In this document: positions 1-10,382 of the stretch, in pieces
Position numbering within the stretch: the stretch's first letter is position 1
Layout: the number at the start of each line of letters is the position of its first letter
NCBI RefSeq assembly: GCF_000526215.1
Contig: NZ_JAFQ01000004.1
Span: 3,844,001-3,908,000, forward strand
Source of the DNA: Nocardia sp. BMG51109
Lineage (GTDB): Bacteria > Actinomycetota > Actinomycetes > Mycobacteriales > Mycobacteriaceae
Direction: 5' to 3'
DNA length: 64,000 nucleotides
Notes under the pieces: model-generated
What the model was told of the DNA's origin: nothing
Seen by the model: only the letters and a program-made list of their open reading frames with translations
Database searches by the model: none
Translations under genes and position numbers: made by a program

Positions 1-1
1 G

Positions 2-511
2 CAGGCGAACGAGGCCGGCCGGGACGAAGTGTTCTTCCGGGTCAACTGTCTGGGGCCGCTGGGACTGGTTCGAGAGTTGGTGCCCGGCATGGTGAACCGC
101 GGTTGGGGCAAGGTCGTCCTGGTATCGAGCGTCGGGGGCGGTGTTGCCGCTTTTCCCGGGTTCGATTACGCCGACGGAATGAGTAAGGCAGCGATCGCCT
201 ACCTCACCCGCCATCTGGCGGCCGAGCTGGCACACGACCCGGTGGACGTCTTCTGTGCCTGTCCGGGAGCCACCGACACTCCGATGCTGCGTGCGAGCAC
301 ACTCGATCATCTCGACGACTCGGGACGCCGCGGTCTGATCCGGCGACTGCCGGACGGCCGGCTCGTCCACCCCGACGAGATCGGGGAGCTCATCGCCTGG
401 CTGTGTGGCGACAGCGCCCGGGTGTTGCGCGGTGCGGTCCTCGACGCATCGCTCGGGCTGGGCGTTCACCCCGGCCTGCTCACGGCGACGGACCCGGCGG
501 CACGGCGGTGA
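2..511 (+). CDS. Short-chain dehydrogenase/reductase, 5'-truncated by window edge
   Basis: The reading frame is already open at base 2, so the N-terminal Rossmann glycine motif lies outside the window. What remains is the C-terminal two thirds of an SDR: the NCLGPL segment of helix alpha-4, the VSSVGG strand with the active-site Ser, the PGATDTPM loop after the catalytic helix, and a C-terminal substrate-loop region. The usual Y-x3-K pair is altered. Lys (185-187) is present in GMSKAA, but the residue four before it is Asp (173-175), and the only Tyr (167-169) is two residues too early. It is the first gene of a coupled operon: its TGA overlaps the GTG start of the decarboxylase by 4 bp. The family is clear. 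The substrate is unknown, and classical SDR chemistry is doubtful with the altered Tyr. Confidence 0.85.
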   Translation, partial: QANEAGRDEVFFRVNCLGPLGLVRELVPGMVNRGWGKVVLVSSVGGGVAAFPGFDYADGMSKAAIAYLTRHLAAELAHDPVDVFCACPGATDTPMLRASTLDHLDDSGRRGLIRRLPDGRLVHPDEIGELIAWLCGDSARVLRGAVLDASLGLGVHPGLLTATDPAARR

Positions 512-1938
512 GAAATGGCAACGGCCCGAACCGATCCGGGTGCGCGGGGTGGGATGGCGACGAGTTCATCGATGCGGCGGACAGAACCGCTCGAACCCTC
601 AACCGGTACGTGGAAGAGAGCCGAGCCGGACGCACGCCCGTGATCCGGCGCCGGCCGCCCCGTGACGTGGCCGCGCGCCTGCAACTGGCCGACTGGATTC
701 GCAGCGGCGGAATGACGCCCGAGACCTTCGACGAATTCCTCGCCGCCTACCTCGACGAGGGCACCCGCCTGCATCACCCGGGGTATCTCGCGCACCAATG
801 CGCCGTACCCGATGTCCCGTCGTCGCTCGGTGATCTCGTGCACGGGGTCGCCAACAACGCCATGTCGTTGTATGAGATGGGCGCCGCCGCGGCGACAGTC
901 GAACTCGCCGTGATCGATTGGATGCTGACCATGCTCGGATGGTCGCCCGCCGCCGGTGAAGGCGTCCTCGTTCACGGCGGTTCCCTCGCGAATCTCACGG
1001 CGCTGCTCGCCGCCCGCGCCGTCGCGCTGCCCGACGCCTGGGAGGACGGCGTCTCGCGGCGCGCGGTGATCGTCGCGCCCGGCACCAGCCACGTCTCCAT
1101 CGCCCGGGCGGTCCGGATCATGGGTATGGGACGTCGCGGCCTGGTGGCCGCACCGACCGATGACCGGGGCCGCATCGACATCGGCCGGTTGCCCGCCGTC
1201 CTCGACGGCCTGCACCGTGACGGGGCAACCGTCGTGGCCGTGGTCGCCAATGCCTGCGCCCCGGCCACGGGCCTCTACGACGACCTCGGCGCTCTCGCCG
1301 AAGTGTGTACGGCCCACCGGATTTGGCTACACGTCGATGGTGCTCACGGATGCTCCGCACTGTTGTCTCCCGGCCTGCGTCACCATCTCGCCGGAATCGA
1401 ATGGGCGGACTCGGTTGTCTGGGACGCGCACAAGATGTTGCGGACGTCCACGCTCGCGGCCGCGGTCCTCGTCCGCCGCCCCGCGGCGCTCGGGCAGGCA
1501 TTCGGGCAGCCCGCGGACTATCTGTTCTTCGACGACCAGCGCACGGGAATCGACCTCATGCTGCGCACCGTGGAGGGAGCCAAGGCCGAACTCGGCCTCA
1601 AGCTCTTTCTCAACCTCGCCTGGCGTGGACAGGAAGGGCTCGGCGAATACATCACCGCGACCCACCGGATGGCGCAGCGGCTCTGGGAACTGGTCCGCGA
1701 CCATCCGAACTTCGAGACCCCGTTTCCGCCGGAGAGCAATATCGTCTGCTTCCGCCACGGTACCGATGACACCCACCAGATCCGCGTGCGCGACAGGCTC
1801 ATTGCCGGTGGCACCCACCACTTGGCGTCCTCCCTCGTCAACGGTCGCCGCTATCTGCGTGCCACCGTCATGAGCCCCGCCACGGATGAATCCGTACTGC
1901 GCGATCTGCTCGCGGAGATCGAACGCTGCGAGACATGA
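508..1938 (+). CDS. PLP-dependent group II amino-acid decarboxylase
   Basis: A 476-aa protein of the aromatic-amino-acid/glutamate decarboxylase superfamily (PF00282, fold type I PLP enzymes). Visible landmarks are the HPGYLAHQ substrate-loop segment near residue 90, VHGGSLANLTAL (PLP phosphate region), HVDGAHG (Asp that pairs with the pyridine nitrogen) and DAHKMLRTS, whose Lys (about residue 309) should form the internal aldimine. GTG 508 is chosen because it forms a GTGA overlap with the SDR stop, and no in-frame ATG fits. Its own stop overlaps the next gene by ATGA, so SDR, decarboxylase and hydrolase are translationally coupled. With a formamidase and a tryptophan dioxygenase beside it, kynurenine or another Trp-derived amino acid is the likely substrate, giving an amine. 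This is inference; diaminobutyrate-type substrates cannot be excluded. Confidence 0.9.
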   Translation: MRNGNGPNRSGCAGWDGDEFIDAADRTARTLNRYVEESRAGRTPVIRRRPPRDVAARLQLADWIRSGGMTPETFDEFLAAYLDEGTRLHHPGYLAHQCAVPDVPSSLGDLVHGVANNAMSLYEMGAAAATVELAVIDWMLTMLGWSPAAGEGVLVHGGSLANLTALLAARAVALPDAWEDGVSRRAVIVAPGTSHVSIARAVRIMGMGRRGLVAAPTDDRGRIDIGRLPAVLDGLHRDGATVVAVVANACAPATGLYDDLGALAEVCTAHRIWLHVDGAHGCSALLSPGLRHHLAGIEWADSVVWDAHKMLRTSTLAAAVLVRRPAALGQAFGQPADYLFFDDQRTGIDLMLRTVEGAKAELGLKLFLNLAWRGQEGLGEYITATHRMAQRLWELVRDHPNFETPFPPESNIVCFRHGTDDTHQIRVRDRLIAGGTHHLASSLVNGRRYLRATVMSPATDESVLRDLLAEIERCET

Positions 1939-2834
1939 CCGATACGCCGCGGCCGCGTCGCGCGCATTCGGTCGCCGCCGACTATTGGCGCCGATGGACC
2001 TGTGCGCAACGCGATCAGGAGTACTCGCCGAGCCTGCTCGTCGCCGACTTCCCGGGCCTGCTCGACGAATACGCTACCCGCAGTGCCCGTACGCGCCAGG
2101 AGATTCCGCCCACGGTCGTGCGATACGGTCGCCGCCGTCGCGACACGATCGACTTCTTCCCGGCCCGCTATCCCGACGCACCTCTACTCGTCTTCGTCCA
2201 CGGCGGCTACTGGCAGCAACTGGGCAAAAGGGACGCGAGTTTTCCCGCTGCGGGCCTGACCCGCGCCGGTTGTGCGTACGCCGCACTCGACCACGGGCTC
2301 GCACCCGACCTCGACCTGCCGGCAATCATCGACAGTGTGCGCACCGCGATCGCATATCTGACGACACACGCCGCCACCTGGCGTATTCAACCCGCACGCA
2401 TCATTCTCGCCGGCAGTTCGGCAGGGGCGTACCTGGCACTGACCGGCCTGCTCGACGAGTGGAGCATCGACGGCACCCGACCGCGCGAGCGGATCGCCGG
2501 AGCCGTTCTGCTCGATGGCATTTACGATCTCGAGCCGCTCGTGGGCACCTATATCAACGACGCGCTCGGCCTCGATGCGCCGACGGCGCGACGGCTGAGC
2601 CCGCTCGACCGTCTGCCCGGCCGGCTGCCGCCGACGATCGTCGCCCGCGGCGAGCACGAGACCGACGCCTTCGCATGGCAACACGCTCGCGCGGCCGCCG
2701 CTCTCGCGCCACGCACCAGCGTGACGGATCTCGTCGTCGCCGGGCGCAATCACTTCGATCTCGTTTTCGACCTCGATCGGCCCGATACCGTCCTCGGTCA
2801 CGCCGTCTTCGATCTGCTTGGCCTACGCACGTAA
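1935..2834 (+). CDS. Alpha/beta hydrolase resembling kynurenine formamidase
   Basis: A 299-aa alpha/beta hydrolase. The oxyanion-hole motif HGGYWQ (residues 89-94) is the signature of the arylformamidase/kynurenine formamidase branch. The nucleophile elbow is GSSAG with Ser at about 162; a late Asp (in the GEHETDAF segment) and the His in GRNHFDLV complete a triad. Arylformamidases hydrolyse N-formyl-L-kynurenine to kynurenine and formate. The neighbour downstream encodes a tryptophan 2,3-dioxygenase-type enzyme, whose product is exactly that substrate, so the assignment is supported by both motif and context. ATG 1935 overlaps the decarboxylase stop (ATGA). Members of this branch also act on other formamides or esters, so specificity is inferred. 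Confidence 0.85.
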   Translation: MTDTPRPRRAHSVAADYWRRWTCAQRDQEYSPSLLVADFPGLLDEYATRSARTRQEIPPTVVRYGRRRRDTIDFFPARYPDAPLLVFVHGGYWQQLGKRDASFPAAGLTRAGCAYAALDHGLAPDLDLPAIIDSVRTAIAYLTTHAATWRIQPARIILAGSSAGAYLALTGLLDEWSIDGTRPRERIAGAVLLDGIYDLEPLVGTYINDALGLDAPTARRLSPLDRLPGRLPPTIVARGEHETDAFAWQHARAAAALAPRTSVTDLVVAGRNHFDLVFDLDRPDTVLGHAVFDLLGLRT

Positions 2835-3191
2835 CCGGTTGCGCAGCAGCGGGATCCCATATTTCGGCCGGCCGTCGATCTTGTGTGATACCGGTCGTCG
2901 ACCCGCCGGGCGCCGCCGCACGTCGGCCCGCCTCGGTTCGGTCCGGGTGATGACCGTATGCGGCAAACGAATTGCGGCTATGTACGCGGGGGACTCCCCA
3001 GCAGCCCATCGGCGACCGATGATGAAGTCGTGGTCATGCCAGGCCGCGGCCTACCGATTTCGGGTGCGTCGGAGGTACGGATCAACTACCGGGCCCGGCC
3101 TTCGTCCTTCGAATGCTCAACGCGCGTCACGCATTATGCCGAGCACCTGCCGCGTGGACGGAATTCTCGATCTGCCCGGAGGGAGCGATAG
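2835..3191 (+). other. Intergenic stretch without a recognisable gene
   Basis: This 357-bp gap separates the formamidase-like gene from the dioxygenase fusion. All frames are open only as GC-rich noise, with Arg/Pro/Ala-rich translations and no domain. It ends in a good ribosome-binding site, GGAGGGAG at 3178-3185, for ATG 3192. A promoter for the dioxygenase may lie here, but I cannot point to convincing -35/-10 boxes. Confidence 0.5.
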
Positions 3192-4592
3192 ATGGGGCGT
3201 GTCATGCAGTTGTGCACCATGCCGGCCGATGTCGCCGAGGCCGTCGCGGAGTGGATGGCCGGTCTCACTCGGGCGCATGACGAACTGGGGCGGAAGGGGC
3301 CGGTGTGCCCGTTCGTGCGGCCCGCCGACGAAGCCGGAGCGATCCGAACGGAATGCTTGCGTGCCGAATCTGGAGACGGCATAGAAGAATTGGTCGCGGC
3401 CCTCCGTCGTCAGGTGCACCGTTTCGGCGAGTTTCCGGCGTCCGGTGGTAGGGAGCCGCTCGACAGCCTCGTGACGGTGATGGACGGGCTGCCGAGGCAC
3501 CGCTGGCGGCTCCTCGACGCCGCGCAGCGCCGGATTCGTCGCGAGGTGGTGGCGGCCGGCCTCATGGTGGGCCAGTTCCATCCGGAATGCCCCGAGCCCG
3601 GGTACTGGAATCCGTCCTTCATGGTCTCGCGGTCACCGGTGCCGCTGATCGTCCTGCGCCGGATGGCTTTTCACGACATCCTGTTCCTGCATTCCGACCC
3701 CGCCTTGTTCGCCGAATATGACAGGAGGTTCGGTCGGTGGTACCAGGAGGGAAAGGTTCCGGCCGAGTTCCGCGCCCTGTACGACAACGCGCCCCGGCTG
3801 CCCGCCGCGACCGGCCGACCGTACCTGGACTACCAGAGCATCCCCCTGCTGCATGCTCTGCATCAGCCGCGCACCGAGCATCAGCCGGAATCGTCGTTCT
3901 ATCTCGCCGGTCAGTCCATGGAGTTGCTGTTCTCCCTGGTCCTGGGTGAGGTGCGGGCCGCCCAGGAGGGCATGGTCGTCGACGATCTCGGTCGCTGTGG
4001 CTGGCATCTGCGCCGGGCCACTGCCGGGATGCGGTTGCTGTGCGGGTTCTGGGATCTGCTGTCGACGCTGTCGCCGGCGGAGTTCAACTCGTTCCGGGAT
4101 GCGCTCGGCGAGGCCTCCGGCCTGGGCTCCTACAAATACCGCACCCTGGAGTTCGCCCTCGGGGCGAAATCGCCGGCCATGGCGGCGCGGCACGACGGCG
4201 TGCCGGCCGTCGCTGCGGAGGTGTACCGCGCCCTGCACGACGCCAGCGCCTACGACGACGCCCTGGGAGTGCTGGTCCGCCGGGGGCTGCTCGCCGACGA
4301 TGACGCCGGGCACGATCGCGATCCGGTCGCGGTGCGGTCGGCGTGGGCCAGGATCTATCGGGAGGAGACCGTTTCCGGTGACCTGGTGCGCTGGGCCGAG
4401 GCGTTGATGGACCTCGCCGAAACCGTCGGCAGATGGCGCCGACTCCACCTGCTCACCGTCGAGCGGATCATCGGCTACAAGCCGGGAACCGGCGGCACCG
4501 CCGGCGTCGAATGGCTGCGCGACGTCGCCACCCACCACGTGTTCCCCGAACTGTGGGAGGCGCGCTTACAATTGTCCGGAGGCCCGGCCTGA
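3192..4592 (+). CDS. DUF6875 - tryptophan 2,3-dioxygenase fusion protein
   Basis: A 466-aa two-domain protein. Residues 1-205 match the actinobacterial DUF6875 family from memory: CPFV near residue 39, GLMVGQFHP, PEPGYWNP, and RSPVPLIVLR-x-M followed by FLHSD. Residues about 215-466 are a tryptophan 2,3-dioxygenase, a heme enzyme opening the indole ring to N-formylkynurenine. Landmarks are SMELLF, a WDLLSTLSPAEFNSFR-type helix, SGLGSYKYR, and HLLTVERIIGYKPGTGG with the presumed proximal heme ligand His at about 419. Standard bacterial TDO is about 280 aa without the N-terminal domain. Oddity: the normally conserved distal HQ-x3-E-L motif reads GQSMEL, so the indole-NH-binding His is Gly240. 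Start ATG 3192 has a strong RBS. It lies downstream of the formamidase in the same direction. The dioxygenase fold is sure; the substrate could be a modified Trp. Confidence 0.9.
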   Translation: MGRVMQLCTMPADVAEAVAEWMAGLTRAHDELGRKGPVCPFVRPADEAGAIRTECLRAESGDGIEELVAALRRQVHRFGEFPASGGREPLDSLVTVMDGLPRHRWRLLDAAQRRIRREVVAAGLMVGQFHPECPEPGYWNPSFMVSRSPVPLIVLRRMAFHDILFLHSDPALFAEYDRRFGRWYQEGKVPAEFRALYDNAPRLPAATGRPYLDYQSIPLLHALHQPRTEHQPESSFYLAGQSMELLFSLVLGEVRAAQEGMVVDDLGRCGWHLRRATAGMRLLCGFWDLLSTLSPAEFNSFRDALGEASGLGSYKYRTLEFALGAKSPAMAARHDGVPAVAAEVYRALHDASAYDDALGVLVRRGLLADDDAGHDRDPVAVRSAWARIYREETVSGDLVRWAEALMDLAETVGRWRRLHLLTVERIIGYKPGTGGTAGVEWLRDVATHHVFPELWEARLQLSGGPA

Positions 4593-4726
4593 GTCGGATC
4601 CGTTGTCGCCGTTCAGCATTCCGGTGCGGGGGCGAAGCGTTTCCGCTCATCGGTGCGGGCGGGTTGTCGCCGGATCCGGTGGTGCAGGTGTCCGAATGCC
4701 AGCAGCGCGAAGATATCCGTTCCGGG

Positions 4727-6202
4727 CTATCGCCCGGCCGCGGATTCCGGTCGCCGTGGTGCCCCAGGCCCGGCCGGTGCGGGAAATCGGTTGCGCGTCA
4801 ATATGATCGCAGGCACCGCGGCGAGGACGAAGAGAACTCCTGCCATCGTGACGTAGAGGTACACGCCGGTTGCCGTGCTCGCCGGGTCGCCGTCGGCGAA
4901 GGTGCCGGGAACCTGGGTCGCTTTGAGTATCTCGCCTCCGGCGATGGTGAAGACGACCGAGCCGAGGGCGAGCACGACCGACACCAGGCCGGCGGTCGTG
5001 CCCTGACGCTCGGGCGCTTCGAGGCTGGTCGCCAGGTTGTAGCCGGAGGCGCCGATCGCGCCGGCGGCCATGCCGATCACGGCGCCGCAGGCGATCGCCG
5101 GTGGGAGCGCCGATACGCCCGCCAGCATCGCGAAGGTAGCCACCGCCCCGACGGCGATGCCGCCGAGGAGGGGCAGCGCGGGACCGAACCGGCCGGCGAG
5201 CCATCCGGCGCAGACACCACCGATGACGATGCCGATATTGGGCGTGGCGAGCAGGACCGCGATCGCCTCTCCGTCGCCCAGCCCGTAGCCGAGGCCCAGG
5301 TCGGGGGACACCTGGGCGATGATGCTCGTCAGTTGCAGCATGCTCCGGAAGGAGCCGGCCGCCAGTACCAGGGCCAGCAGAGTCAGCAGGATCGGGCCGC
5401 TCAGTGCCCGGATGTCGATGAGGGGTTCGTCGACCCGCAGCGCGCGCAACGCCCAGCCGGCCGACGCCGCGGCGCCGGCCGTCAGCAGCGCGATCATGCC
5501 CCCGGACGACCATCCGAGGTCGCTCCCGAGGCTGATGTAGCCGAGTATCGCGCCGAGTCCGCCGCCGAGCAGGAGCGCACCGGCCACGTCGATCCGGCCG
5601 GTGCCGCGGATAGGCGACTCCGGGAGGAACGAACGCACGCAGAGTGCGGCCGCGGCGGCGAGCAGCGCCGCCACGATGAACACGCTGCGGTAGCCGAACA
5701 CATCGATGATCGGCTTCATCAGGAACGGCTCGATGATTCCGACGAGAGACGAGCCGGATGTCACGACCCCGACCACGGCCATCGCCACTCGCGGGGTGCA
5801 GATCTGGCGCGCGAGAGTCACCGTGAGGAAGACCGCGGCGAAGGCGGCACCTTGAAAGAAGCGGCCCACCAGGAAGATCCAGACGTTGGGGGCGGCGAGG
5901 CAGACCAGCGCTCCCGCGCAGGCGAGCAGCAGCGTGCCGATGAGTATCCGGCGCTTGCCGAAGAGGTCGGAACTCTTCGCGAGCAGCGGCGACCAGATCG
6001 CCCCGGCCAGCATCGCGCTCGCATTCAGCCACGCGGCCTGGTCGGTGTCGAAATGCTCCAGCAGCTGGGGCAGGACCATCATGGGCGAGCCGATGACCAC
6101 GTCGGCCAGGACGTTGGCGAGGGTGAGAACGGCCGCCCAGAGGATGAGGCGTCCACGCCAGCGGTGTTCTCGGACGGCGGGGTTTTCCAACGTGTCCGTC
6201 AT
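4727..6202 (-). CDS. MFS drug/metabolite exporter (14-helix type)
   Basis: A 491-aa major facilitator. The N-terminal half shows LAKSSDLFGKRRI, the loop 2-3 motif A of drug:H+ antiporters (here D-x2-GKR), and GRFFQGAAFA in helix 4. Hydrophobic segments continue to near the C-terminus, consistent with a DHA2-like 14-helix protein of normal length. The C-terminal tail is short and basic. Its ATG overlaps the stop of the upstream FAD monooxygenase by one base (TAATG at 6200-6204), so the two are co-translated. Context suggests export of the product of this metabolite cluster, or self-resistance. It converges with the dioxygenase gene across 134 bp. The exported substrate is unknown. Confidence 0.9.
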   Translation of the reverse strand: MTDTLENPAVREHRWRGRLILWAAVLTLANVLADVVIGSPMMVLPQLLEHFDTDQAAWLNASAMLAGAIWSPLLAKSSDLFGKRRILIGTLLLACAGALVCLAAPNVWIFLVGRFFQGAAFAAVFLTVTLARQICTPRVAMAVVGVVTSGSSLVGIIEPFLMKPIIDVFGYRSVFIVAALLAAAAALCVRSFLPESPIRGTGRIDVAGALLLGGGLGAILGYISLGSDLGWSSGGMIALLTAGAAASAGWALRALRVDEPLIDIRALSGPILLTLLALVLAAGSFRSMLQLTSIIAQVSPDLGLGYGLGDGEAIAVLLATPNIGIVIGGVCAGWLAGRFGPALPLLGGIAVGAVATFAMLAGVSALPPAIACGAVIGMAAGAIGASGYNLATSLEAPERQGTTAGLVSVVLALGSVVFTIAGGEILKATQVPGTFADGDPASTATGVYLYVTMAGVLFVLAAVPAIILTRNRFPAPAGPGAPRRPESAAGR

Positions 6203-7335
6203 TATGGATTCTCTTCGGCGCGTTGGGTTTCGGCGATGCCGGTGTCGAGTGCTCGCAGCGCCCGGTTACGGGCGGCGATGTCGGCCCAGGTGGCCGGCAC
6301 TATGCGGTCGCGGCCGCCCTCGACGCGGTCCTGGGCGAAGGCGACGTAGGGCCGCAGCCGGGCCTCGTACCGCGCGAACGCGGTTGTGTGGTCGTTGCCG
6401 CACCGTTCGAGTTCCTCGGCGAGAAAGCGAGCGCCGGTGAGCGCCAGCGAGGTGCCCCGGCCCGACAGGTAGGCCGGGCAGTACCCGGCGTCCCCGACGA
6501 GGACGACGCGGCCGCGGTGCCAGGAGGGCAGGTGGATCCGGCTCGCGGAGGTGAAGAAGAAGCCGGGATCGGCGCGGGCCGCCTCGAGCAGCTCCGGGAT
6601 CCGCCATGACCGGTGGCCGGCGAAGGCGTCGAGGAGGATCTTCTTCTGTGCGTTCAGGTCGCGGTGGTCGTAATCGATGGGCGCCGAACGGAACTGGAAG
6701 TTCGCCACGGCCTTGCCTCGGTACCGGAAGACGCCTGCCATCCGGCCGGGGACGTTGTATATAGAGTTCGCGCCCCCGGAATGCGCCTCGCCGGGGAGAT
6801 CGGCGAGAGCGAAGTAGACACCGAGATGCCGTAGGTAGTCCTCCTCGGGCCCGAACACCAGCCCGCGTACCGCGGAGTGCTGGCCGTCGGCACCGACCAC
6901 CAAGTCGTACCGCCCGATGTCGCCGGAGGCGAAACGCACGTCGCCGCTGTCGGTCAGCGTCTCGATCGAGTCGCCGAAGCGGATCACCGCGGTATCCGGA
7001 AGCGCATCGGCGAGGATGCGCACGAGGTCCTCGCGGAGCAGCTCGATGTCGTCGTCGGAGTCGCTGATCTCCGCCATCGGGATCCGGGCCACCGGCTCGC
7101 CCCGGCTGTCGACGAACCGGGTCAGCTCGGACACCCGGACTCGTTGCTTCCGGATCTTCGCGAGCAGTCCCATCCTGTCCACGGCCTCGATCGCGGCGCC
7201 GCGAATGTCGATGGGTGTGCCGGTGAGCCGGAGCCGGCGGGCGTACTCGACAACGGTGACGTCGTGGCCGCGGGCGCCGAACTCGAGTGCGCAGGCGAGC
7301 CCGGCGATACCGGCTCCGGAGACGAGGATGTTCAC
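6202..7335 (-). CDS. FAD-dependent aromatic monooxygenase (PHBH/TetX-like)
   Basis: A 377-aa class A flavoprotein monooxygenase. It has the N-terminal GAGIAGLACAL dinucleotide motif, VVGADGQHSAVR (the DG motif binding FAD and NADPH) and GDAGYCPAYLSGRGTSLAL (the GD motif binding the FAD ribityl chain). Length and motif order match single-component hydroxylases of phenols and anthranilate- or tetracycline-like aromatics. It is first in a two-gene operon with the MFS exporter and is divergent from a TetR gene, across an intergenic region with two palindromes. An aryl-amine or kynurenine-type substrate would fit the neighbouring genes; antibiotic inactivation is the alternative. Confidence 0.9.
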   Translation of the reverse strand: MNILVSGAGIAGLACALEFGARGHDVTVVEYARRLRLTGTPIDIRGAAIEAVDRMGLLAKIRKQRVRVSELTRFVDSRGEPVARIPMAEISDSDDDIELLREDLVRILADALPDTAVIRFGDSIETLTDSGDVRFASGDIGRYDLVVGADGQHSAVRGLVFGPEEDYLRHLGVYFALADLPGEAHSGGANSIYNVPGRMAGVFRYRGKAVANFQFRSAPIDYDHRDLNAQKKILLDAFAGHRSWRIPELLEAARADPGFFFTSASRIHLPSWHRGRVVLVGDAGYCPAYLSGRGTSLALTGARFLAEELERCGNDHTTAFARYEARLRPYVAFAQDRVEGGRDRIVPATWADIAARNRALRALDTGIAETQRAEENP

Positions 7336-7376
7336 GTGTGCGCTCCAGTTTCGCTGAGAGGGATGCGCGACCGATA

Positions 7377-7405
7377 ACTAAAAGAAACAATATGTCGCTT
7401 TTAGT
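7377..7405. promoter_or_regulatory. Inverted repeat, candidate TetR operator
   Basis: ACTAAAAG at 7377-7384 and CTTTTAGT at 7398-7405 are perfect 8-bp arms around a 13-bp spacer. The region is unusually A/T rich against this genome and lies between the divergent monooxygenase and TetR genes, the classic place for a TetR autoregulatory operator. Confidence 0.6.
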
Positions 7406-7407
7406 GA

Positions 7408-7419
7408 GCATACGTATGC
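7408..7419. promoter_or_regulatory. Perfect 12-bp palindrome GCATACGTATGC
   Basis: A gap-free palindrome that begins 2 bp after the longer inverted repeat, in the same divergent promoter region. It could be a second operator or the core of a compound site. Confidence 0.45.
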
Positions 7420-7490
7420 CCGGCTTGCACCGCAACGCCGCGGCTGGCGACAATCGGCACCCGAACACGAAACAGGAGGTGAGCGCGGCG

Positions 7491-8099
7491 ATGGTCGACG
7501 GGACCGCGGACCGGCCGCCCGCGCGGCGCCCCGGTGGCCGCAACGCGCGGGTGCGGGCGCAGATCCTCGCCGCGACCGCCGAACTCGTGGCGCGCGACGG
7601 CATCGCGGGCTTCCGCTACGAGGAGGTCGCCGAGGTCGCCGGCGTGCACAAGACCAGCGTCTACCGCAACTGGCCCGACCGGGAGGAACTGGTCGCCGAG
7701 GCCCTGCTGCAATACGCCGAGGATCTCGCGTCCATCGCCGACACCGGCGACATCCAGCGCGACCTGGTCGACTACCTGGTGGCTCTCGCCGGCGGCCTGA
7801 ACACGCCGTTCGGCCGGGCCCTCGAACTGGCCACCCAGCCCACCCGCGAGAACCCCGCCGTCCGGCAGACGGTGGCCAGGATCCTCGAGCAGCGCGGAGC
7901 CGCCATCCGGCGGCGAGTGGACCTCGCCGTCGGCCGCGGCGAGCTCCCCCCGGTCGACAGCTCCTTCCTCGGCGAAATGATCTCCGGCCCGGTGCGTCTC
8001 ATCGTCAACCGCGGCGTGCGCCAGTTCACCCGCCCGGACGCGGAGCGCATCGTCGGCGTGGTACTGGCCGGCATCCGGGCCACGGCACCGCACCCTTGA
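7491..8099 (+). CDS. TetR/AcrR-family regulator
   Basis: A 202-aa regulator. The N-terminal helix-turn-helix spans about residues 17-63, ending in the typical HKTSVYRNWPDREEL recognition helix and linker. The C-terminal ligand domain looks like TetR_C members that control efflux or oxygenase genes. ATG 7491 is chosen because AGGAGGTGA (7474-7482) sits 8 bp upstream; the longer open frame upstream runs through the operator region and is not conserved-looking. It is divergent from the FAD monooxygenase-MFS pair, so it probably represses that pair and itself through the 7377-7419 palindromes. Confidence 0.9.
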   Translation: MVDGTADRPPARRPGGRNARVRAQILAATAELVARDGIAGFRYEEVAEVAGVHKTSVYRNWPDREELVAEALLQYAEDLASIADTGDIQRDLVDYLVALAGGLNTPFGRALELATQPTRENPAVRQTVARILEQRGAAIRRRVDLAVGRGELPPVDSSFLGEMISGPVRLIVNRGVRQFTRPDAERIVGVVLAGIRATAPHP

Positions 8100-8262
8100 G
8101 CAGTCGCCTCGGCCGCGCTGTCGGGCCGACGACGGAGCGCCGCCACGTGTGCGTTCAGCGCGGTAAGTCGAAGTGCCGCATCAACTTTCGGTGTACAGGG
8201 CCAGGGGAGCGCCGCGTGTTCGACCGCACCGACCGAGCTGTCGGCGTCCGTGATCAGTACGC

Positions 8263-9612
8263 TCAGCGGGCCATCACGGTGACCGGTAGCTCGGGGAATC
8301 GGGAAATTGCCCCTTTGTACAGTGGTGAGCGGTCGATCAGCGGATCCTCGACCAGCCGCCAGCGGGCGCACGCCGTCGCGACGAACACGAGCATCACCGT
8401 CTGTGCGAAGGATGCGGCGATGCACATCCGGCGACCGTTTCCGAACGGGACGAAGGCTCCCTTGGGGAGACTGTGTGGCGGCCGATCGACCCAGCGGTCG
8501 GGGTCGAAGGCCGAGGGATCGGGGTACACGGCCGGATCTCGGTGCAGGGCGGGTGGAGCGAACAGCAGTTCCGTGCCGACCGGAATATCGATCCCGCCCA
8601 GCCGCATCTCATCGGTCGTCCTGCGCATGAGGAACCAGGTCGGTGCGTGTAGTCGCAACGTTTCGGTAATCACGTTGCGTGTGTATGTCAGGTGCGGAAA
8701 GTCTTCCTCGGAGACCTGTCTTCCGCCCAACGCATCCTCGAGTTCGTGATGCAGCCGTCCTTCCACGTTCGGATGGCGGTTGAGCTGGTAGAACAGGGCA
8801 GCCAGGGTGCTGGTGGCGGTGACGAAGCCGGTGATCATGAATGTGATCAGCTCGTCCCGGGCCTGGATATCCGACATACCTTCCCCATCTTCGGGGTCCC
8901 GGGTGGTCAGGATCGTCGATAACAGGCCGGAATGCTCGGGGTCGGGTTCCGACAGCCGGTAGCTGGCTATGATTTCATCGATAACCGATCGAATTCTCCC
9001 GCTCAGCTCGCGGAACCGCCGGTTTCTGGAAGTGGGGAGTCTCGTCCAGAATCGGGGCACGAACGTGTTTGCCGCCACGCTTTGTAGCACCGTCGGCAGC
9101 AGGCGGGTCACCTCCTCGGCACCGCGCGGGTTCAGTTCCGCGGAGAAAATTGTGTTCATCACGGTCTTCAAGGTGAATTGGTCCAACACGTCCACTAATT
9201 CCACCCGTTGCCCCGGCCGCCAGGATTCGGTGGCTCGGCGGGCGTTTTCCCCGATCCCGGGCACGTAACTGGATAGTGCCGCGGGTTTGAAGGCGTGTTG
9301 CGAAATTCTGCGCTGATGCATGTGTAATGGCTCCGACGAGGTGACCAATCCGTTCCCCAGAAGCGTCCGAAGATTATCGAACAGGCGACCTTTCTCGCAC
9401 GCCGCGCCCTGGGGCACCAGTATTTCGTGGACCAGCGCCGGATCGGTTACGAGGTAGACCTCCTCCGTGCCCAGCCGTATCTTGACAAGCCCCCGGAGTG
9501 CGCTCATCTCCCGGATGAATTCCACTGGTCGGCGGGTCATCGGGATCAGGTGACCCAGCACGGGGATGCGGCCGGGTGCGGCGGGAACGGCTACCGGAAT
9601 CTCCGCACGCAT
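8263..9612 (-). CDS. Cytochrome P450
   Basis: A 449-aa P450 with EtLRLHAPTWFLMR (ExxR, K helix), a PERF-type DPDRW segment, and the heme loop FVPFGNGRRMCIA with axial Cys at about 397. Oddity: the I-helix reads TGFVTATS where most P450s have (A/G)Gx(D/E)T(T/S), so the acid of the proton-relay pair is Val. Such changes are seen in some bacterial P450s of natural-product pathways. ATG 9612 overlaps the TGA of a 34-codon ORF upstream (TGATG), which fixes the start better than the in-frame TTG at 9684. The C-terminal half (YKGAISRFPELPVTV) is normal. Probable role: oxidation within the Trp-derived pathway or the decayed polyketide pathway beside it. No redox partner is adjacent. Confidence 0.9.
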   Translation of the reverse strand: MRAEIPVAVPAAPGRIPVLGHLIPMTRRPVEFIREMSALRGLVKIRLGTEEVYLVTDPALVHEILVPQGAACEKGRLFDNLRTLLGNGLVTSSEPLHMHQRRISQHAFKPAALSSYVPGIGENARRATESWRPGQRVELVDVLDQFTLKTVMNTIFSAELNPRGAEEVTRLLPTVLQSVAANTFVPRFWTRLPTSRNRRFRELSGRIRSVIDEIIASYRLSEPDPEHSGLLSTILTTRDPEDGEGMSDIQARDELITFMITGFVTATSTLAALFYQLNRHPNVEGRLHHELEDALGGRQVSEEDFPHLTYTRNVITETLRLHAPTWFLMRRTTDEMRLGGIDIPVGTELLFAPPALHRDPAVYPDPSAFDPDRWVDRPPHSLPKGAFVPFGNGRRMCIAASFAQTVMLVFVATACARWRLVEDPLIDRSPLYKGAISRFPELPVTVMAR

Positions 9613-9716
9613 CACAGTGATCCGATCGGCGGGGTAATCGCCCGCTCTCCCACGTCGGCGTAGATTGTGCGCAGAATGTCGCAATGATGGTGGATGGGAG
9701 CGTTGCCGGTGGTCAT
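9612..9716 (-). CDS. Small 34-aa protein translationally coupled to the P450
   Basis: A 35-codon ORF with ATG at 9716, preceded at about 8 bp by an AGAGAGG-like Shine-Dalgarno and ending in a TGA that shares one base with the P450 ATG. The peptide starts MTTGNAPIHHHCD and ends ITPPIGSL. It has a His3-Cys patch, no signal peptide and no family I recognise. The coupling and RBS argue that it is translated. It may be a leader that tunes P450 translation, a small partner protein or, more speculatively, a precursor peptide. It is too short to tell these apart by inspection. Confidence 0.55.
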   Translation of the reverse strand: MTTGNAPIHHHCDILRTIYADVGERAITPPIGSL

Positions 9717-9860
9717 GGCTGCTGCCTCTCTGCTGTTCGGTCGAGGTGATCGGCAGGGACGGGTGCGGTGATCACGCGAGGCCGATTTGTGCTGCGGCGG
9801 CGATGGCGGTCCGGTGAACGGACTCGAAAGAACTGCGTGCTGTCAGTACGTCGGAATTAT

Positions 9861-9877
9861 GTAGTTATCCGAACTAC
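9861..9877. promoter_or_regulatory. 17-bp inverted repeat upstream of the P450 operon
   Basis: GTAGTT (9861-9866) and AACTAC (9872-9877) form 6-bp arms around ATCCG. Read on the - strand, the repeat overlaps an A/T-rich TACATAAT-like -10 region about 145 bp ahead of the small ORF. It is a plausible operator/promoter for the small ORF-P450 transcript. Confidence 0.45.
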
Positions 9878-9968
9878 GCGCGAGGCGGTCGGATATCGTA
9901 TGCGACATCCGCGATAAGATGCAGAATTGTCTGATTTCCACCGTTGAACTGCGATTCTGTATGTGATG

Positions 9969-10382
9969 CTACCGGATTGCTACTTCGCAAGTCCAGGCTT
10001 CTCCTGCGTCCCGCGCAGCGTGATCCGGCCTGAAGTGCCGCAGAGAGGCGAGCTGTCCGGCCACACGCGGTCCTCGGCGGGTCCGTCGGTCCGGACGATC
10101 GGCGGTGTATGCCCGCCCGTGCCAGGAGCAGCGGCAAACGATGACGGTGAGACCGGGGCCGACGGCGAGCAGTATTCCTTCGGCGGGGTCGGGCGGCGGA
10201 GCGGCGAGGAAGCGGGCGGTGACGTCGAGGACGGAGACGGAACCGGCGTTACCCAGTTCCTGGAGGCTGCGGCGCGATGGCTCGAGCAGGCACGGGTCGA
10301 GATCGAGGGTATGTGTGATGGTCTAGAGGATGCGGGGACCGCCAGGGTGGCCGGTGTCGGAGGGATGGATGTAGGGGAAAAT
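9969..10382 (-). pseudogene. Type III polyketide synthase, C-terminal remnant (RppA-like)
   Basis: Reading down from 10382 on the - strand, the frame encodes SDTGHPGGPRIL, the catalytic-His signature of chalcone/stilbene-type synthases. An in-frame TAG follows at 10325-10323, then the rest of the C-terminal lobe: SRRSLQELGNAGSVSVLDV with the catalytic Asn, and ILLAVGPGLT. The pattern matches bacterial tetrahydroxynaphthalene synthase (RppA) C-termini. Recognisable homology ends near 10090, and the open frame runs to TAG 9971-9969. The N-terminal two thirds with the active-site Cys is missing. It is in the same frame as the monooxygenase fragment at 10383-10619, so one deletion appears to have fused two neighbouring genes. 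Confidence 0.7.

What the first reader, a model, noticed from the sequence alone, without database searches (positions are those of the whole stretch)
2..9716. Candidate kynurenine/kynuramine-type natural product cluster
TDO, kynurenine-formamidase-like hydrolase and PLP decarboxylase sit together with an SDR, an FAD hydroxylase, a P450, an MFS exporter and TetR control. No kynureninase or anthranilate catabolic gene is present, so the set looks biosynthetic, not degradative: Trp to kynurenine to a decarboxylated amine, then oxidised and perhaps cyclised to a quinoline-like product.
Basis: inference. Interest (0 to 1): 0.75.

Follow-up and report, generated by a model that had tools for sequence, protein, structure and literature searches.

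The report
Tryptophan oxidase–dioxygenase fusion in Nocardia
A Nocardia gene read as an ordinary tryptophan-cutting enzyme is really two enzyme domains joined in one protein, probably both heme enzymes, apparently built to make 3-hydroxykynurenine from tryptophan without the usual flavin enzyme, and its relatives may supply an unexplained hydroxylation step in antibiotic pathways such as actinomycin.

Summary
The named genes exist, but the key one was misread. The 'TDO' (3192-4592) is a fusion: an N-terminal DUF6875 domain (heme-binding 'cytochrome P422' tryptophan oxidases, some of them Trp C-7 hydroxylases according to PMC13307353) plus a C-terminal TDO. C-7 of tryptophan becomes C-3 of kynurenine, so the likely product is N-formyl-3-hydroxykynurenine, made without kynurenine monooxygenase. 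Of 79 related loci, 12 carry the fusion and 20 more carry DUF6875 as a separate gene near TDO. P422 and a KMO-like FAD gene share 0 of 77 TDO loci. Actinomycin's acnF (211 aa, essential; no KMO in its cluster) is probably this hydroxylase. In the window an SDR-decarboxylase-formamidase operon precedes the fusion, so decarboxylation to 3-hydroxykynuramine is plausible but unproven: the SDR-decarboxylase pair seems to occur elsewhere on its own, and 11 of the 12 other fusions carry an aminotransferase and amidase instead. MFS, FAD hydroxylase and TetR are a separate Nocardia cassette (9 of 9 fetched loci). New variant of a known kind.

The parts
1..511 (+). SDR (3' part; whole gene L004:3705-4511, 268 aa, begins 296 bases left of the window)
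   Evidence: adh_short_C2/adh_short on the 3' part; extended by fetching the left flank; homologues share contig lengths with homologues of the decarboxylase
508..1938 (+). group-II PLP decarboxylase, 476 aa, GTG start overlapping the SDR stop by 4 bases; K309 (PLP lysine), H195, D277 and catalytic-loop Y338 present
   Evidence: PF00282 180.7 bits on the longer frame 403-1938; PDB relatives 5o5c, 4rit, 4obu, aromatic amino acid decarboxylases; residues located, their roles recalled
1935..2834 (+). alpha/beta hydrolase, probable kynurenine formamidase (HGGYW at 89, GSSAG at 160), ATGA overlap with the decarboxylase stop
   Evidence: BD-FAE/Abhydrolase_3; 65.6 bits to kynurenine formamidase 4e11, 100.5 to 'Lipase 1' 9n8r; 33-57% homologues next to TDO in many other loci
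3192..3806 (+). DUF6875 / cytochrome-P422-type domain (aa 1-205), probable tryptophan C-7 hydroxylase
   Evidence: PF21780 151.9 bits; R34, C39, P40, R156, H161, D162 among the columns invariant in both alignments; model pLDDT 95.2; closest folds AglA, then nitric oxide synthase heme domains, weak
3807..4592 (+). TDO domain (aa 206-466) of the same ORF; proximal His H419 kept, distal His replaced by G240
   Evidence: PF03301 134.6 bits, over cut-off; TIGR03036 224.9 bits, under its 390.7 cut-off; 2nox, 7p46, 2nw7 by sequence and 2nox, 7p46, 2nw8 by fold; residue table
4727..6202 (-). MFS transporter; judged NOT part of the pathway
   Evidence: with FAD and TetR in 9 of 9 fetched Nocardia loci without the + strand operon
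6202..7335 (-). FAD monooxygenase (PRK05868/tetracycline-destructase-like, under all curated cut-offs shown); judged NOT part of the pathway
   Evidence: 74-85% homologues in 11 other genomes of the 148 searched, own included
7491..8099 (+). TetR regulator divergent from the FAD-MFS pair; judged NOT part of the pathway
8263..9684 (-). cytochrome P450 (pentalenene-oxygenase-like, under cut-off); membership undecided
   Evidence: no match at E<=1e-110 in the 147 other genus genomes searched

Best explanation
The locus holds an operon-like row SDR - PLP decarboxylase - kynurenine formamidase - P422·TDO fusion. The fused protein acts in sequence: its DUF6875/P422 heme domain hydroxylates L-tryptophan at C-7 (ortho to the indole nitrogen), and its TDO domain opens the pyrrole ring of 7-hydroxytryptophan to N-formyl-3-hydroxykynurenine, so that no FAD kynurenine 3-monooxygenase is needed. 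The hydrolase removes the formyl group; the decarboxylase then most likely converts 3-hydroxykynurenine to 3-hydroxykynuramine, which the SDR may reduce or which may cyclise after amine oxidation to a 4,8-dihydroxyquinoline-type product. Shown here: the fusion, its conservation, the repeated pairing of the two domains, and the gene layout. Inferred: heme binding and C-7 regiochemistry (from what is published on the P422 family), order of steps, formamidase assignment, the decarboxylase and SDR substrates, and the end product.
For: DUF6875 and TDO in one 466-aa ORF, and both domains in 37 other proteins of the 120 listed (535 found) from Streptomyces, Actinomadura, Saccharothrix, Nocardiopsis, Nonomuraea, Rhodococcus, Actinopolyspora, Paraburkholderia and unnamed sources. 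DUF6875 proteins are described as heme-binding tryptophan oxidases that include Trp C-7 hydroxylases (PMC13307353). Of 79 genome loci, 12 hold the fusion and 20 more hold P422 as a separate gene in the locus; both domain trees give the same fused clade of 12 rows, the window and 11 of those loci (SH-aLRT 99 and 98); the fused label needs 3 changes (gains or losses) on the TDO tree, at least 2 forced by well-supported branches. P422 and KMO-like FAD genes do not share a locus: P422 only 34, both 0, FAD only 20, neither 23 of 77 TDO loci; among loci with the methyltransferase of the actinomycin/mycemycin loci 11 have P422 and 5 the FAD gene. Actinomycin D: no KMO gene in the cluster, and a 211-aa hypothetical (acnF) beside formamidase, TDO, kynureninase and methyltransferase is indispensable (PMC6521150); in S. 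iakyrus, a species with a reported actinomycin G cluster, the gene beside TDO is DUF6875. SDR/decarboxylase and decarboxylase/hydrolase frames overlap by 4 bases each.
Confidence: 0.55

Rival explanations
1. Two unrelated modules side by side: the P422·TDO fusion plus formamidase makes 3-hydroxykynurenine for some use, while the SDR-decarboxylase pair works on another substrate (for example a diaminobutyrate-like or other amino acid).
For: Decarboxylase and SDR homologues are listed with identical longest-contig lengths (38,668; 1,252,863; 367,586; 515,420; 4,976), for Myxococcaceae, Myxococcus fulvus, Serratia quinivorans, Rahnella and an unnamed source (indirect, adjacency not seen); best NCBIfam match of the decarboxylase is the diaminobutyrate decarboxylase model at 151 of 900 bits; no decarboxylase in 79 related loci.
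Against: In the window the decarboxylase stop overlaps the formamidase start (ATGA) and the SDR stop overlaps the decarboxylase start, which suggests translational coupling of the three; hydrolases of this kind stand near TDO in many other loci.
Confidence: 0.25
2. One reading: ordinary TDO makes kynurenine, which is decarboxylated to kynuramine and then oxidised by the neighbouring FAD hydroxylase and P450, exported by the MFS and controlled by TetR.
For: Gene types and coordinates are right; the P450 has no close match in the 147 other genus genomes searched, so it could belong to a strain-specific unit.
Against: The TDO is fused to DUF6875; FAD, MFS and TetR form a conserved cassette without the rest in 9 of 9 fetched loci.
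Confidence: 0.08
3. The DUF6875 domain in the fusion does not hydroxylate free tryptophan at C-7: it is inactive, oxidises another position, or acts on kynurenine after ring opening.
For: Only part of the family is described as C-7 hydroxylases; DUF6875 genes also occur in 4 of the 79 loci where no TDO was seen (L104, L111, L114, L115).
Against: 20 columns are invariant over 37 DUF6875 rows, the window being one of them, so the domain does not look decayed; the methyltransferase of P422-TDO loci is homologous to the one next to TDO in S. iakyrus and S. olivaceus (56% and 63% to the L083 enzyme), and the actinomycin enzyme is said to methylate 3-hydroxykynurenine, which needs the oxygen at exactly this position.
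Confidence: 0.12

Closest known systems
Cytochrome P422 / DUF6875 tryptophan C-7 hydroxylases (ZigI of zigralone biosynthesis, PMC13307353)
   Same: Same Pfam domain, tryptophan-derived substrate, natural-product setting
   Different: ZigI is a separate gene proposed to act on a prenylated indole intermediate; here the domain is fused to TDO
Bacterial tryptophan 2,3-dioxygenase (2nox, 2nw8, 7p46)
   Same: Fold and proximal His
   Different: N-terminal oxidase domain; distal His replaced by Gly; scores below the curated TDO equivalog cut-off
4-methyl-3-hydroxyanthranilate modules of actinomycin (acnF-G-H-L-M) and mycemycin (mymH) clusters
   Same: Very probably a DUF6875 gene with TDO (plus formamidase, kynureninase, methyltransferase in several loci)
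   Different: Kynureninase and methyltransferase follow there; in the window a decarboxylase stands in their place and the two oxygenases are fused
AglA, YqcI/YcgG thiolate-heme hydroxylase (PMC12866846)
   Same: Best structural match of the DUF6875 model; both have a conserved Cys near the N-terminus
Fused P422·TDO - class-III aminotransferase - amidase - (N-acetyltransferase) loci of Streptomyces californicus, Nocardiopsis terrae and others
   Same: Same fused enzyme, sister sequences (70% best-segment identity to L039)
   Different: Downstream genes fully different; no decarboxylase or BD-FAE hydrolase found in the stretches held

Membership tests
Tryptophan 2,3-dioxygenase | Pfam Trp_dioxygenase over its cut-off | tested here: met
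   134.6 bits against 34.9
Tryptophan 2,3-dioxygenase | NCBIfam TIGR03036 equivalog cut-off | tested here: not met
   224.9 bits against 390.7
Tryptophan 2,3-dioxygenase | Proximal heme His (H240 in Xanthomonas, recalled) | tested here: met
   H419, His in every TDO hit that covers the column
Tryptophan 2,3-dioxygenase | Distal His (H55 in Xanthomonas, recalled; entries 3e08 and 3bk9 are H55S and H55A mutants) | tested here: not met
   G240; also absent in many TDOs without P422, so not specific to the pairing
DUF6875 / cytochrome P422 | Pfam DUF6875 over its cut-off | tested here: met
   151.9 bits against 24.5
DUF6875 / cytochrome P422 | Residues invariant across a family sample | tested here: met
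   20 invariant columns in 37 rows, the window being a row of that alignment
DUF6875 / cytochrome P422 | Heme binding and the C-7 hydroxylase motif of the paper's Figure S17 | not testable with these tools
   Supplementary figure and the bioRxiv paper were not available; no wet assay
YqcI/YcgG heme N-hydroxylases | AglA-like sandwich fold with Cys-ligated heme | tested here: inconclusive
Kynurenine formamidase | HGGYW and GxSxG motifs (recalled) and linkage to TDO | tested here: met
   activity not testable
Diaminobutyrate decarboxylase | NCBIfam NF052646 cut-off | tested here: not met
   151.2 of 900 bits
Group-II PLP amino acid decarboxylase | Pfam cut-off, PLP lysine, catalytic-loop Tyr (roles recalled) | tested here: met
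   180.7 bits against 27; K309, Y338
Ordinary kynurenine pathway | Kynureninase in the genome | tested here: not met
   best 31.3 bits against 246.4

The most novel reading that the evidence does not exclude
A two-heme 'KMO-free' kynurenine machine: a tryptophan 7-hydroxylase and a tryptophan dioxygenase that appear to have fused more than once, handing 7-hydroxytryptophan from one domain to the other and giving N-formyl-3-hydroxykynurenine directly; in this Nocardia it feeds a decarboxylase and so starts an undescribed 3-hydroxykynuramine / 8-hydroxyquinoline-type pathway. The same unfused pair is the missing 3-hydroxylation step of actinomycin, mycemycin and related 3-hydroxyanthranilate antibiotics.
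Probability: 0.45. Interest if true: 0.78.

Novelty: new variant of a known kind. Interest (0 to 1): 0.6.

Why it matters
It would show a second, flavin-free way to 3-hydroxykynurenine in which hydroxylation comes before ring opening, explain actinomycin clusters that lack a kynurenine monooxygenase gene (stated for S. costaricanus in PMC6521150) and give the indispensable but unassigned acnF a job, and offer a single-polypeptide cascade joining two oxygenases of unlike fold. It also warns that proteins annotated simply as 'tryptophan 2,3-dioxygenase' may make a different product.

Tried and rejected
Rejected: the one-cluster reading of all genes. Tried: the aminotransferase of sister fusions elsewhere in the own genome; best match 39%, 195 bits, not a clear orthologue. 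Tried: distal-His loss as a marker of P422 pairing; it is also lost in TDOs without P422, so dropped. Tried: neighbours of the closest decarboxylases; at E<=1e-130 only the own genome of 396 phylum genomes matches, and the one plasmid hit at E<=1e-60 (Azospirillum, 50%) has no SDR or TDO annotated within 8 kb. No PLSDB plasmid record covers 80% of the fused protein (93 records match part). PHROGs and PADLOC: nothing. Own genome has 3 PF04199 (cyclase-type) loci, so another formamidase is not excluded. Promoter and terminator scan of 1-10000: 1 and 2 sites against 0.6 and 3.4 expected. Profile search of DUF6875 against PDB sequences: one hit at E 0.78, discarded; folds below the AglA rows are not used as evidence of homology. 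Literature: 10 answered searches; DUF6875 in one paper, no paper with kynuramine, Streptomyces, decarboxylase and biosynthesis together, no paper in the list whose title or abstract start names the actinomycin hydroxylase (those papers were not opened). This speaks only for the open-access library; the P422 bioRxiv paper (doi 10.64898/2025.12.11.692455) was seen only as a reference and may already cover the fusion or actinomycin.
Full report
What is there. The window is G000:C4:3844001-3908000 of an 8.79 Mb genome. Its genus includes Nocardia wallacei: contig G146:C245 (29,598 bases) has the length of, and the same DUF6875-TDO pair as, record NZ_JARWOP010000245.1. On the + strand lie SDR (L004:3705-4511, ending at window 511), PLP decarboxylase (508-1938), alpha/beta hydrolase (1935-2834) and a 466-aa ORF (3192-4592, preceded by GGAGGGAG); the first three overlap by 4 bases at each junction, the last follows after 357 bases. 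On the - strand follow MFS (4727-6202) and FAD monooxygenase (6202-7335), divergent from a TetR gene, and a P450 (8263-9684).

The 'TDO' is a fusion. Residues 16-185 match DUF6875 (151.9 bits, cut-off 24.5), residues 210-461 match TDO. The own genome has one TDO locus and two DUF6875 genes. The fused model has pLDDT 85.9 and pTM 0.85 with a low-confidence stretch at 209-217 between the domains; the TDO half matches 2nox best. DUF6875 alone models at pLDDT 95.2. Its best structural matches are AglA, a thiolate-heme arginine hydroxylase (abstract start and passages of PMC12866846), then, among other unrelated rows, many nitric oxide synthase heme domains, all at weak scores. Cys39 is invariant in the DUF6875 rows aligned, and AglA is ligated by a Cys near its N-terminus; H161 is invariant too, so the axial ligand is undecided.

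What DUF6875 does. The only paper found (PMC13307353; parts 1 and 2 of 3 of the text, and passages) says that such proteins are heme-binding and oxidise L-tryptophan, that the heme motif of Trp C-7 hydroxylases is known, and cites a bioRxiv paper naming a cytochrome P422 family, which I could not read. C-7 of tryptophan becomes C-3 of kynurenine, hence 7-hydroxytryptophan plus TDO gives N-formyl-3-hydroxykynurenine (established chemistry).

Comparative evidence. A protein search gave 535 homologues (7,995 candidates scored), 120 listed, of which 38 including the window carry both domains. A scan of the species-genome collection kept 79 loci out of 166 candidates; because the query was the fusion, this set is enriched for DUF6875. 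Twelve loci are fused (L039-L049, L065; the script marks L046 as split, apparently because its hit runs past the stop; its ORF is 463 aa). Of these twelve, 11 carry a class-III aminotransferase and an amidase directly downstream, the same 11 a class-I/II aminotransferase in the locus, 8 an N-acetyltransferase, and 1 (L049) a kynureninase (families). None shows the window's decarboxylase or hydrolase in the stretch held. Twenty further loci have DUF6875 and TDO as separate genes, four have DUF6875 and no TDO. In 77 loci with TDO (81 examined: the 79 plus L166 and L167; L166 duplicates L113) 34 have P422 only, 20 only a FAD monooxygenase of the three kinds tested, 0 both and 23 neither (one of the 20, L051, is a weak match 8 kb away). 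With the methyltransferase of the actinomycin/mycemycin loci the split is 11 to 5 (10 to 5 without the duplicate). Relatedness weakens this: the five form one clade nested among P422 loci, so they are one exchange. The FAD gene of those five resembles salicylyl-CoA 5-hydroxylase, under its cut-off, rather than a proven kynurenine monooxygenase (three of the five scanned), and L116 has a further Tet(X)-like FAD gene not counted.

Trees. The TDO domain of the window sits in a 12-row clade of fused genes, itself and 11 loci (SH-aLRT 99), sister to the Streptomyces pair L039/L040 (100); the DUF6875 domain gives the same 12 rows (98) and the same sisters; L049 lies outside in both. With ten further fused proteins added, the fused state needs three changes on the TDO tree, at least two of them forced by well-supported branches; the fused rows are the aminotransferase clade, S. 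inhibens, and a group of proteins P0032-P0038. The count does not tell gain from loss, and these are quick trees without bootstrap. In the 22 unfused P422 loci (L166 and L167 included) P422 precedes TDO on the same strand, with 102-4741 bases between the hits; other genes lie between in the wider ones.

Link to a gap in the literature. Passages of PMC6521150 state that the actinomycin D cluster of S. costaricanus lacks a kynurenine 3-monooxygenase gene and that acnF, a 211/212-aa hypothetical next to formamidase, TDO, kynureninase and methyltransferase, is indispensable; its authors proposed a role in dimerisation. Streptomyces iakyrus, for which the same paper mentions an actinomycin G cluster, has DUF6875 (183.7 bits) directly before TDO and the methyltransferase, beside a siderophore-interacting protein and an NRPS with two methyltransferase stretches and a thioesterase. 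The order P422-formamidase-TDO-kynureninase-methyltransferase, as in acnF-G-H-L-M, is found in L089, L098 and L100, which by the look of their other ORFs are not actinomycin clusters. Mycemycin mymH (220 aa, 'hypothetical', homologue in S. viridochromogenes DSM 40736; passages of PMC5867642) probably corresponds to the DUF6875 gene of L106, another strain of S. olivaceus. I did not have the acnF or mymH sequences, so these are strong inferences, not tests.

The decarboxylase and SDR. The decarboxylase is a complete group-II enzyme. Its nearest homologues (62%) are from a Myxococcaceae genome, Actinomadura sp. KC216 and Corallococcus terminator, and SDR homologues are listed with the same longest-contig length in five cases among the 120 rows shown in each search. 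So SDR-decarboxylase looks like a conserved pair, apparently without TDO, though its neighbours elsewhere could not be read. In 148 genus genomes ten others have a 44-46% decarboxylase homologue. The substrate is therefore open; overlap with the formamidase gene is the main argument for 3-hydroxykynurenine.

The - strand genes. FAD homologues of 74-85% occur in 11 other genomes of 148; I fetched nine of these eleven loci, and in 9 of 9 TetR, FAD and MFS stand together (73-86% identity) without decarboxylase, hydrolase, DUF6875, TDO or P450 hits; two have a distant SDR (31-34%) some kilobases away. They look like a self-contained TetR-controlled cassette of the genus. The P450 has no close match in the 147 other genus genomes and cannot be assigned.

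Verdict. The real finding is the P422·TDO fusion: a new variant of a recently described enzyme family, with a probable hydroxylate-then-cleave logic; the kynuramine branch is plausible but rests mainly on gene layout.

Noticed in passing
G000:C4:290888-291400 (L173:8889-9401 -): A second DUF6875 gene of the same genome (188.6 bits) lies beside a 1406-aa ORF that by eye looks like an NRPS, and megabases from the only TDO; it is a long branch in the DUF6875 tree.
   Followed up: partly
proteins P0062 and P0064: TDO fused to an alpha/beta hydrolase (BD-FAE) in 590- and 506-aa proteins: a different fusion, possibly joining ring opening to deformylation.
   Followed up: no
L052, L053, L056: Three Streptomyces loci hold two TDO-kynureninase sets back to back, one with P422 and one without: a natural side-by-side comparison of the two routes.
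   Followed up: no
window 4727-8099: MFS-FAD-TetR cassette with 73-86% identity in nine fetched Nocardia loci, FAD of the PRK05868/tetracycline-destructase kind.
   Followed up: partly
PMC7024260 (BE-13793C; one passage seen): The authors found no tryptophan hydroxylase gene for the proposed 7-hydroxytryptophan; a DUF6875 gene elsewhere in that genome would be a candidate.
   Followed up: no
L003:16847-18067 (-), left of the window: An ORF that looks like a type-III polyketide synthase with an aldo/keto-reductase-like ORF beside it (L003:15893-16828), named by eye from the sequence, no family search.
   Followed up: no
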